Part shown: positions 9,290-64,000 of the stretch, piece by piece
How positions within the stretch are numbered: the stretch's first letter is position 1
Layout: each line of letters starts with the position of its first letter
Source of the DNA: Apus apus
Taxonomy: Eukaryota; Chordata; Aves; Apodiformes; Apodidae
Assembly: GCF_020740795.1 (NCBI RefSeq)
Contig: NC_067299.1
Location: 10,830,194 to 10,894,193, forward strand
Length of the DNA stretch: 64,000 nucleotides
Direction: 5' to 3'
Notes under the pieces: generated by a model
The model's database searches: none
Seen by the model: the letters and a program-made list of their open reading frames with translations, nothing else
What the model was told of the DNA's origin: nothing
Program-made: the position numbers and the translations under genes

Positions 9290-10311
9290 TCCCTGCAAAA
9301 CGTTGCCGAGGCCTCTCCTGCCTGGATGGCGGCCCGCTCTGAGAGCTGCCGAGAGCACCTGACAGGAATGATGGCCACAAGGAAAAAGACTGGCCCAAGT
9401 CGGTCATCTTGCGACCCTCCGAGCCCTCCAGCCCTCTTGCCTGCAGCGGCCTTGCCCTGCCCCACCAAAGCTCACCCACTGCTGAGTGACAACGTCACAG
9501 CCACCAAGGAAAGAGCCACAGAGTCAGACACAGTGGTTTGCAAGCGAGACTTTACTCAACAGGGGGAAGTGCTGCTGCCCACAGCCTGCCTGCCCGGCCC
9601 TGCTGGAGAAGGCTCCTGCTGGACATCTCTCTGGGCAGCCTCTGTGTCCCGGGGCTCTCCTGGCACTCACCGACGCGGGCGGGATCTGCGCCGCAGAGCT
9701 GAGGAGCTGAACACGAAGCTCTGCAGTCTTGGATGCACAGAGAGGTGCAGAGCAACACTGCGGGTCTAGTCCGACCCCACACGTGGTGGGATCTGCCCCT
9801 GGACAGAGCAGGCCCACGGTCCCTGTGCCGCAAGCCCGGCCTGCTGCTCTCCACACCACCAGGGCTGTCGGGAAAAGACCTCTTTGCCCAGGGGCTGTGG
9901 GGAGTCAAAGGAAGGAAGGGCGCTGCCGGGCAGGGCAAACACCTGCCATCTTCAGAGATCTTTACCTGAGGGAGTCCTCCTCAGCACCAGGGCAATGGGC
10001 TCTTCCCTCTGCCTTCCGGAGGAGGCAGGTGGCTGCTCTGCCCACGGAGAAAGGCAAAAGGACAAAGTCTGACACCTCAGCTGAGACCCTCCCGCCTCTC
10101 CCCTCTCCCAAACACCCCCAGGCTGCCATCCAACCCCACAGCTCCCTGAGAGCCAGCTCTGCTTGGGGCTGCAGAGGGGCACCTGGCACCGGGGGCTGAG
10201 CCTGCCTTCCCGCCTTGGCTCCCCGGCAGGAGACCAAAGCTCTTCTCCCAGCTCTTTTTCCCTGCCTGCAGCACCTGGGCATGCCATGGCTCTCCCTGCT
10301 CTCTGCAGCCT
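9290..10311 (-). other. 3' flank / 3' UTR of the CCDC81-like copy in unit A
   Basis: Sequence beyond the stop codon of the minus-strand CCDC81-like gene. No further open exon with fitting phase was found. An AGTAAA variant poly(A) signal lies on the minus strand at about 9551-9556, followed by GT-rich sequence, a possible transcript end. Equivalent flanks exist in units B (21,934-22,954), C (34,590-35,610) and D (51,552-52,574). Confidence 0.45.
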
Positions 10312-11611
10312 TCAGGGCTTCCATGGCTCTCTCTTCCTTTGCCTTGCCTTCTGCTGGTACTTCTTGCGCAAGGAGTCCCAGAGCTTCTGTCTCTCCTCCT
10401 CCGTGCAGGTGCGGGGCTGTGCCTGCAGGGCCACGGCAAAGCAGCAGCAGCAGCCTTAGTCTCCCCGCAGGAGGCTGGGGCCACTTGAGCTCTCCCCCTC
10501 CCTCCCTGCCTCCCTCTTGCCCCTGCTTTGCTCGCAGGCCCGACTGCAGAGCCTCTCTGCAACGGCCCCGCAGCCAAGTGCCCCGGGGCTGAGAGCAGCC
10601 CAGCTGCTGGCTGTGCCAGACACGCCTGGCAGGGCCGCTGCCGGGACAAACACCAGCAGGGCAACAAGTCCTGGGCGGCTTCTGGAGCTGACACACGACA
10701 CACTCTTGGAAGACACCCGAGCCGTGCAGCCGTGCTTTTCCCCGGGCGGCTGCAGCCCCACCAGCCCACGCCACGTACCGCTCCTGCGCTCCTCTGCCCT
10801 GGCCCAGCCTGGGCTGCGGGTCGGGCTCCAGCTGCCTGCAGGTCTTGGCTGCTCTGCGGCTCGTCCCTCGCCCGGCTCCACTGCAGCACCGCCAGCTCGC
10901 TGCGACACAGAGCGGGAGAGAGTGGGCTGAGCGCAGGGAGGCAGAGCGCTGCCCAGCCGGGGCTGCCGGGCTGGGCGCCTGCCGAGAGCCCGGGGCCACC
11001 AACAGCCCCTCTGAGCCCCGCCGAGGAAGCTGCGCCAGAGGAAGCCCCGCCCGCCTCGGGAGGGATGATTTACCACTTGAGCTTCTCCTGCAGATCCCTC
11101 TGCTCGTCCCTCTGGCCCCTGCGCTTGCGGGCCACCTGCCCCAGGATGCACGTCACCACCTGCAGCAGGACGCGCTGTGTCCGCGGGGAAAGGCTCCTGC
11201 AACAGCAAGGACCGAGGCTTGTGACCCTCCTGCCTCTCTCCTCCCGCACCCAGCCCCACGCACGCTTGGTGCCCCCTTTGGCCCCACAGCCCCTTCCAGG
11301 CAGCAGGAGTCGCCAGCATCCTGCCTTGGCCCTTGCCGTCCAGCTGTGCCCAGCTCATTCCCACGGCTGGAGAGCTGCCCAGCTGCTCTGTGCAGCCCCG
11401 GGGCTCAGGCCTTGGCTTCCTTGGCGCCCCGCCTGCAGCTCAGCACCACCCCACTGCCCCAGGCCTTGGCTGGAGCTGACGCACTCTTACCGCTTTGGGG
11501 GGACACGGTTGTCCTGCTGCACCCTGCCTGGATGTCCCTTGGCCCCTTGCCGCTGCCCCAACATCCTCTCCAGGAGGTCAGCTCCGCAATCCCTCTTCTG
11601 CCTGGGACAGG

Positions 11612-11860
11612 CAGGGCGGGCTGAGGGTTGCCTGGCTGAGGGTTGCCTGGCTGAGGGTTGCCTGGCTGATGGAGGCTTGGCTGATGGTTTCCTGGCTGAC
11701 TGTTTCCCAGCTGACGGTTGCCCGGCTGGTGCTGGCCTGCCTGGTGCTTTCCTGGCTGGTGACTGCCGGGCTGATGGCTGCCTTCTTGCTGGTCGCCCGG
11801 CTGGTGATTGCCGGGCTGATGGCTTCCTGGCTGATGGTCGCCCGGCTGGCAATGGGGAAC
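11612..11860 (-). repeat. 15-bp coding minisatellite in CCDC81-like exon 8, unit A
   Basis: Imperfect 15-bp units (plus-strand consensus CTGAGGGTTGCCTGG and variants) encode Pro-Ser-Ala-Arg-Gln/Lys type pentapeptides on the minus strand. The period keeps the frame. Units A, B and D have three perfect adjacent units and unit C has two, so exon 8 is 377 bp in A, B and D but 362 bp in C. Equivalent arrays lie near 24,261-24,509, 36,917-37,150 and 53,882-54,130. Confidence 0.85.
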
Positions 11861-62107: not shown

Positions 62108-62152
62108 GATCATGTGATCTTTGCAAAATTAGACTGGGGGCACATCCCCTAG
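59823..62152 (+). pseudogene. CR1 ORF2, unit D, six frame breaks
   Basis: The frame is lost by one missing A near 59,859, then is open from 59,903 to 61,198 (endonuclease and start of RT). It is broken by an extra T near 61,183, an extra G near 61,280, an extra G near 61,452, an extra T near 61,556 and two extra bases near 61,611. The last part (61,625-62,152) is open again, with GVPQGSVLGP and the FADG motif. All but the last are single bases, mostly in homopolymers, so sequencing error is a real alternative to decay. Confidence 0.83.
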
Positions 62153-63552
62153 CAACTGACACTCTGCATATCAGGGAAGGAAAACCCTTGTGGTCCACAT
62201 GGCAGGTCCCTTCCGAAGATCAGGAACCAAACAATACATCATTGTGATTGTGGAAGTGGTGTCAGGATTGACCTGTGCTGAAGCTGTTTCGAAGGCAAAT
62301 GGTGAAAACAGGGTTTGCTTCTTAGAAAAAGTGTTTGGGATTCTACCTAAACCCACAAATAGCCAATCTGACAAGGGAACTCACTTCACCTCACATCTTG
62401 TACGGCAATGGGCTCAAAGGGAAGGTATCAAATTGACATTTCATGTCCCATGCTACCCACAAGCTAATGGGATTGTAGAACACACTAATGGGTTAATTAA
62501 AAGTCTCGTTTGCCCACAGGACTCGAAATGGGATGAAAGATTGAGGGATGCAGTCACTACTGTGAACAATAGGTGGGGGGTGAACGGGTACCCCCGCCTG
62601 AACACTACTCAAGGTCATGGAGAAAATAAAAGGTCTTTTAAACAATCTAAAACTCCCCTCCACCCTGGACAGACTGTTTTGGCAAACCTGCCAAATACCG
62701 GTGAGGTCAAGCTCACCTTACAAACACCAGTGAATTCAAATACATGGGTTGCATCCGATTTAAATGACAAACAACATAAAATCAGTACAAAACGGATAAT
62801 TCATGTTGTGTGTATGTTTACATTTCTGTGTACCTGTGTCTAGTGATGTTGGTTAATATATTGCAAATCATGACAGCTTAAACAGCCAGAGACATCTCGG
62901 TGACAAGACCAGGCCTGATCAACCTGCTACTGGACTCTGGAGGAGTTATTTTGTGACCGCTGTGGGACTGATCACCCCATGGCCTAAACAAGGTGTTCTG
63001 TAACATTCTCTCCTCCTATACTTGCCTTTGAGCTGTTGTTAGCAATATATTGTTGGATGGCAGTAATTAAGAACATTATGGCAGAACTAACTGAAGAGAC
63101 AGGAACGTGGTTCAAATTTGGGAATTCCCTAAATGATCTATTTTTCTTTCCTTTTTTCCACTAGGATTGAAAACTGAGTTTGTGTTATAATAACTGCAAT
63201 TATTCTATTCATAATCTTGTATCCGTGTATAGCCAGCATATGTCCTTTGTGGATAAACTGTGCTCGAGTGAGACGACTTCACTAAAGATTCCCACTAGAA
63301 CAAGCACCTCAGGATCCAAGGGTGAATGATAATATAAATGCTCTCATCTGGTTCAAGAATAACAATTGAGCAACCTAGTGACTGCCAGAAGTAATAGGAG
63401 TCTGACATGTTAGTAAGAGTTTGAGATGTTAGTAAGAGTTTGATTTAGACTAGGTGATTGATCAATTTCAATGTTTACAATGTTTTATTTATACTGTGTC
63501 TTAGTTATTTGTTAAAAATACATCGGATGTGGTCTGGGGCAGAAAGGAGGAG
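62108..63552 (+). mobile_element. 3' part of endogenous retrovirus 2, unit D
   Basis: As in A and B: integrase core, decayed env with membrane anchor, and purine run at 63,541-63,552. In the tail, TTTATTTATACTG near 63,484 matches unit C, where A and B have TTTATTAATACTG. Confidence 0.7.
62190..62843 (+). pseudogene. Retroviral integrase remnant (ERV2), unit D, 217 codons
   Basis: Reads the same protein as unit B and lacks the 4-bp deletion of unit A. It contains SDKGTHFTSHL and NGIVEHTNG. There are no indels here, in contrast to the CR1 part just upstream. Confidence 0.78.
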
Positions 63553-64000
63553 CGACAAGCCATCCTGTGCCCCTGGTAGTCGCCACCCTAACTTGGGGCT
63601 GGTGGACGCTCCTTGGCTCTGGACAGTGACACTGACTGGACGGGTGGGTCAGGGGGTATCAAAGGGGCGAGGGCAGCAGGTGGGCCCTTCCCTCCTCCCT
63701 GAGGCCCGTTCGGACGCTTTCTGAGAGGGACACCCCCTGCTGCGGACACTGGTGCTGGGACCCTGCCTGCCTGCCTGCCCCGGGTCCAGCCTGAGCCTCA
63801 GCGCCGAGCGTGCCGGGGTCCCGAGCCCTGGGGTCGGGGCCGGAGCCCCCTCCCCGTCTTGCTGCCGCTGGAGGGGAAACCAGCGGCCGCTGCACCCGCT
63901 GCCGAGAGGCTGCCCCTCCGACACCACGGGCTGCAGACCTGCCGTCCTGCCTGGCGAGAAGGGGCCACCAACTGCCTCGGGGACAAGCCTCAGGGGAAAC
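63553..64000. other. GC-rich tail of unit D, cut by the window end
   Basis: Same non-coding tail as in the other units. The window ends within it at GGGGAAAC, one A longer than the GGGGAACAGC seen elsewhere, before the CA repeat. No gene is seen. Confidence 0.6.

What the first reader, a model, noticed from the sequence alone, without database searches (positions are those of the whole stretch)
9290..64000. Four-unit direct tandem array of a CCDC81-like gene beside the TYW1 promoter
The word TCCCTGCAAAACGTTGCC recurs at 9,290, 21,934, 34,590 and 51,552, with near-identical sequence after each. Every unit carries a minus-strand gene with two HU-like domains. HU-type DNA-binding folds are best known from bacteria and are rare in eukaryotes outside the CCDC81 family. 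The last unit runs past the window, so the true copy number is unknown and may vary between individuals.
Basis: partly seen in the sequence, partly recalled or inferred. Interest (0 to 1): 0.85.

Follow-up and report, generated by a model that had tools for sequence, protein, structure and literature searches.

The report
Swift tandem array of CCDC81-like genes
A stretch of a swift chromosome carries several near-identical head-to-tail copies of a gene from a multicopy bird family related to a ciliary protein, but three of the four copies seen here lack the first coding piece of the gene.

The parts
9290..21933 (.). Unit A (12,644 bases), CR1 type
   Evidence: Self-BLAST and unit spacing
21934..34589 (.). 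Unit B (12,656 bases), CR1 type
   Evidence: Self-BLAST and unit spacing
34590..51551 (.). Unit C (16,962 bases), long type without the CR1 block
   Evidence: Self-BLAST and unit spacing
51552..64000 (.). Unit D, CR1 type, cut by the window end
   Evidence: Self-BLAST; sequence after 64000 reads N
35611..41466 (-). Gene of unit C, 13 exons, open over 637 aa
   Evidence: Splice sites and phase, comparison with other copies and annotated homologues
41403..41466 (-). Exon 1 of unit C (start codon); absent from A, B and D
   Evidence: resembles the N-terminus of homologue P0002
41355..42254 (-). Block with exon 1 and sequence upstream of it; 4 places in the genome (units C and E, two on C17)
   Evidence: Promoter role inferred from position only; CpG observed/expected is 0.37
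40280..40795 (-). Unit C exons 2 (40795-40734) and 3 (40436-40280): HU1
   Evidence: Pfam PF14908, 29.2 bits vs cut-off 26.1
39804..40060 (-). Unit C exon 4: HU2
   Evidence: Pfam PF18289, 4.9e-20
38114..38294 (-). Unit C lysine/glutamate-rich exon (label ex9), length varies between copies
36796..37157 (-). Unit C exon ex11, coded by a 15-base minisatellite
10312..15504 (-). Gene of unit A, exons 2 to last; no exon 1, otherwise open
22955..28153 (-). Gene of unit B, exons 2 to last; no exon 1, otherwise open
52575..57774 (-). Gene of unit D, exons 2 to last; no exon 1 and a one-base length change in exon 6
16064..19834 (+). CR1-like LINE, 3' truncated (unit A); same at 28713-32483 (B) and 58333-62109 (D)
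   Evidence: RVT_1 8.5e-30 and endonuclease 1.8e-11; block limits; junction 30-mer 3 times in the genome
19885..20358 (+). Piece of a retroviral-type integrase (unit A)
   Evidence: rve 1.6e-10
2175..2552 (-). Open frame holding the flavodoxin exon of the neighbouring gene TYW1
   Evidence: Flavodoxin_1 1.7e-8; Wyosine_form on the same contig and strand

Best explanation
This is a recent segmental tandem array, in the common swift, of one member of the avian CCDC81-like gene subfamily. Shown: head-to-tail units; one complete copy in the window (unit C); three copies in which a CR1-joined segment stands in place of exon 1 and the block upstream of it; further copies at the right end of the array and on contig C17. 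Inferred: the array grew by unequal crossing-over or gene conversion between units. The whole copies (C, the C17 pair, perhaps E) make a protein whose tandem-HU head is a protein-binding module on ciliary or centrosomal microtubules, as in CCDC81 of doublet microtubules, rather than a DNA-packing protein. The charged, repeat-coded tail is free to change or under diversifying pressure. A, B and D are probably not independent genes; at most they are expressed by read-through from a unit further upstream.
Against: No transcript, protein or read evidence for any copy here. The public swift models (P0020, P0021) start inside exon 4 and mix exons of several units. The upstream block of C is not CpG-island-like (0.37). 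The HU constraint is weak statistically (p 0.096 and 0.032, uncorrected) and is not seen between the two C17 copies (0.79) or between C and E (0 synonymous, 2 non-synonymous). The proposed role rests on distant relatives (26-28% identity to the sea-urchin chain).
Confidence: 0.6

Rival explanations
1. The in-window array is inflated by assembly: alternative haplotypes or repeat copies next to a gap were laid head to tail.
For: The differences among A-D (0.25-0.50%) are in the range that two haplotypes of one bird could show (recalled); a 91,139-base N run follows directly.
Against: Three identical internal junctions without a gap; two structural types with D and C differing by indels; copy E and the C17 copies are clearly different sequences (about 95% by BLAST).
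Confidence: 0.12
2. The CR1 5' end serves as a substitute promoter for A, B and D, so these are working genes with a new first exon.
For: The CR1 5' end is CpG-rich (observed/expected 0.91) and lies beside intron 1 in all three; exons 2 to last are open in A and B.
Against: The CR1 lies antisense to the gene; by eye I found no in-phase ATG-plus-donor exon in its first bases (not a tool result); D has a frameshift; HU1 would lack its first part.
Confidence: 0.1
3. These are conflict genes: bird CCDC81-like proteins multiply and change because they recognise invading nucleic acids or selfish elements, as was proposed for this expansion by Burroughs et al. 2017 (recalled, paper not held).
For: Several rows per species in many birds and a swift-only clade. 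Tail non-synonymous change exceeds intron change (p 1.6e-8 and 1.3e-3); tail pN/pS 2.35 for C vs the 855k copy (p 0.027).
Against: The HU head is the slow part, not the fast part. Tail pN/pS is about 1 or less in the other three pairs (0.98, 0.83, 0.79). Best fold matches are ciliary; the general bacterial HU profile is under cut-off.
Confidence: 0.15

Closest known systems
CCDC81 (Pfam PF14908 + PF18289; sea-urchin sperm doublet-microtubule chain 8snb_1K)
   Different: In the tree the swift copies lie in a clade apart from the Anas protein named CCDC81; the charged repeat-coded tail has no Pfam match
Avian CCDC81-like multicopy subfamily (e.g. P0002 Theristicus, P0007 Columba, P0008 Heliangelus)
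   Same: Same N-terminus, HU tandem and C-terminal exons; 54-58% identity over most of the HU part for many rows
   Different: Minisatellite-coded exon and long K/E stretch are prominent in the swift copies; the swift copies form their own clade
Bacterial HU/IHF DNA-bending proteins
   Different: General HU profile PF00216 under cut-off; I see no RNP arm motif (motif recalled)

Membership tests
CCDC81 HU clade | HU-CCDC81_euk_1 domain over curated cut-off | tested here: met
   29.2 bits vs 26.1, unit C protein; narrow margin
CCDC81 HU clade | HU-CCDC81_euk_2 domain over curated cut-off, after HU1 | tested here: met
   71.8 bits vs 26.1, residues 101-172 after HU1 at 13-85
CCDC81 HU clade | Tandem-HU fold like solved CCDC81 chains | tested here: met
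CCDC81 HU clade | C-terminal coiled coil | tested here: inconclusive
   Some helices predicted in the homologue model at pLDDT about 66-78, most of the tail under 50
CCDC81 (one-to-one orthologue) | Groups with the gene called CCDC81 | tested here: not met
   Anas protein named CCDC81 falls outside the clade of the swift copies (node support 0.94 for its own group); the name is the source's own
CCDC81 HU clade | Ciliary or centrosomal localisation | not testable with these tools
   No expression or localisation data held
Bacterial HU/IHF DNA-binding protein | PF00216 over curated cut-off | tested here: not met
   17.7 bits vs 22.4 on the spliced 155-aa HU piece; not listed for the 637-aa protein at E 0.1
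Bacterial HU/IHF DNA-binding protein | DNA binding | not testable with these tools
   Bench assay needed
Recent segmental tandem array | Head-to-tail units of high identity with one shared junction | tested here: met
   Three internal junctions identical; A-D 0.25-0.50% apart over the gene half
Recent segmental tandem array | Copy number varies between individuals | not testable with these tools
   No reads or second individual held

The most novel reading that the evidence does not exclude
The array works as one compound gene. The start and exon 1 of a whole unit (C, E, or one inside the N run) drive transcription leftward through units that lack exon 1, whose exons are spliced in as extra modules, so that copy number and order set which HU head is joined to which charged tail. 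The two public swift models fit this on paper: they join exons identical to E with exons identical to left-hand units, more than 100 kb away in the held coordinates. An annotation artefact explains the same thing.
Probability: 0.07. Interest if true: 0.65.

Novelty: new member of a known kind. Interest (0 to 1): 0.38.

Why it matters
Bird CCDC81-like genes are a multicopy subfamily whose role is open, and two public swift models that use exons of this array carry misleading names (neurofilament medium polypeptide-like; DDB_G0271982). This locus gives an exon model, shows whole and exon-1-less units side by side at over 99% identity, and separates a slow HU head from a fast tail. That makes a choice testable: ciliary structural protein or conflict gene.

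Full report
OBSERVATION. The 18-base word lies at the four stated places on the + strand and nowhere else in the window with up to two mismatches; 0.02 matches are expected. Self-BLAST shows same-strand collinear blocks; the five long ones match at 99.1-99.6%. Unit starts are 12,644, 12,656 and 16,962 bases apart. The 60 bases before the three internal starts are identical, and the left edge differs.

WHERE IT IS. The window is G000:C19:10830194-10894193 in an assembly of 1.10 Gb and 110 contigs. C19 is 12,129,945 bases long. A protein search returned two Apus apus proteins on a contig of 12,129,945 bases, so the genome is very probably the common swift. Right of the window the held contig reads N for 91,139 bases (window coordinates 64001-155139); I cannot tell an assembly gap from a withheld stretch. 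Then follow part of a long-type unit (155317-162191), unit E from 162192, and the right edge near 170057. To the left, TYW1 is on the minus strand: a flavodoxin exon in the open frame 2175-2552 (1.7e-8) and the genome's only Wyosine_form match at C19:10747551-10747730 minus. A CpG-rich stretch (observed/expected 0.83) at about 7900-8900 may be its promoter (inference).

TWO KINDS OF UNIT. A, B and D share a block that begins at 16064, 28713 and 58333. In A it is a CR1-like LINE in + orientation (reverse transcriptase 8.5e-30, endonuclease 1.8e-11), and next to it lies a piece of retroviral-type integrase (19885-20358, rve 1.6e-10). At the same point C and E continue into about 900 bases that also lie upstream of two copies on C17 (4 matches, none in A, B or D). 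The 30-base CR1 junction occurs 3 times in the genome, in A, B and D. Over the gene half A, B, C and D differ by 0.25-0.50%, and each differs from E by 2.1-2.2%; the CR1 blocks differ by 0.12-0.27%. Site patterns conflict with a simple tree, which fits gene conversion or unequal crossing-over (inference).

THE GENE. I built a model on the minus strand from splice sites, phase and comparison of copies, then corrected it with annotated homologues. It has 13 exons (script labels ex1-ex14 without ex7), with GT and AG at the intron borders present in the copies compared. Unit C is open over 637 aa. A and B lack exon 1 and are otherwise open. D lacks exon 1 and has a one-base length change in exon 6. 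E has a one-base length change in exon 1; from a second ATG it was open in the earlier 14-exon version. The two C17 copies have no stop over the 10 of 13 exons that I fetched. The exon 1 peptide MATECFLPARLCPT resembles the start of P0002, MAKDLFLRPHLFPT, which I had not seen when I chose it. The two public Apus models start inside exon 4 and mix units: residues 97-214 of both match E at 100%; residues 270-411 of P0020 match E at 100%; residues 270-391 of P0021 match C at 100%; the last 36 residues of both match left-hand units at 100% and E at 91.7%.

EVOLUTION. C against the C17 copies (504k, 855k): HU exons pN/pS 0.44 (p 0.096) and 0.36 (p 0.032); tail exons ex5-ex11 0.98 (p 0.90) and 2.35 (p 0.027). 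The tail non-synonymous rate (9.4%, 7.0%) exceeds the intron rate (3.9%, 4.1%; p 1.6e-8, 1.3e-3) and the HU rate (2.7%, 2.1%; p 7e-6, 1.4e-4). Results that do not help: between the two C17 copies HU is 0.79 and tail 0.83; C vs E has 0 synonymous and 2 non-synonymous HU changes and tail 0.79; HU non-synonymous change is not clearly under intron change for the 504k copy (p 0.27). All p values are uncorrected and the pairs share history. For the 504k copy tail synonymous change is also high (9.6%), so hypermutable repeats or conversion may contribute. The block upstream of exon 1 differs by 2.6% between C and C17 and is not CpG-island-like (0.37), so calling it a promoter is inference. Length differences in the K/E exon are multiples of three, and in the minisatellite exon multiples of 15; the latter need no selection.

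SPREAD. One search gave 27 proteins at E 0.001, all from birds. An alignment search gave 61 at E 1e-10: 58 bird rows, one alligator, one fish, one unnamed. Several rows occur for Patagioenas (7), Columba livia (4), C. guinea (4), Theristicus (4), Mycteria (3), Morphnus (3), Anas platyrhynchos (3) and others, and emu has one. Rows are 90% clusters, fragments and isoforms, not gene counts, and only 7,993 candidates were scored. In a tree of 30 HU regions the six swift copies included (A, C, D, E and the two C17 copies; B, P0020-P0023 and P0025 left out) form one clade with support 1.00. In the swift genome 15 HU2 matches are a lower bound: five on C19, two on C17, four on C36 (one with a stop), one each on C1, C12, C28 and C32.

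VERDICT. The array and its family membership are well supported on this assembly. The kind is known (bird CCDC81-like expansion; Burroughs et al. 2017, recalled, not held). New here, as far as these searches show, are the locus, the exon model, the mix of whole and exon-1-less units, and the head/tail contrast. Copy number, polymorphism, expression and function are untested.

Noticed in passing
64001-155139 in window coordinates (C19:10894194-10985332): The held contig reads N for 91,139 bases starting exactly at the window end, inside the array. Gap or withheld stretch cannot be told apart.
   Followed up: no
8681-9048 and 49201-49569: A 369-base stretch left of the array matches unit C at 98.9%. 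In the genome the full length at 93% or more occurs only at C19 and C17 places near these genes; part of it is a common interspersed repeat (40 of 2,591 candidates scored).
   Followed up: partly
6614-7862: Tandem repeat of about 1.2 kb (periods 8, 16 and 22) beside the CpG-rich stretch near TYW1.
   Followed up: no
16168-17538 and 17526-19874 (+), with copies in B: CR1-like ORF1 (457 aa) and 3'-truncated ORF2 (783 aa) are open and start alike in A and B, and interrupted in D.
   Followed up: partly
C36:32372395-32372583 (own genome): A diverged HU2 copy with one stop, probably a pseudogene; three further HU2 matches lie at 69.5-70.1 Mb of C36.
   Followed up: no
P0020, P0021 (Apus apus records): Public models named neurofilament medium polypeptide-like isoform X3 and DDB_G0271982 isoform X9 are made of exons from several units of this array.
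   Followed up: yes
P0037 (Limosa lapponica): A 668-aa predicted protein lists an RNase H domain together with HU2: a fusion with a retroelement or a merged gene model.
   Followed up: no
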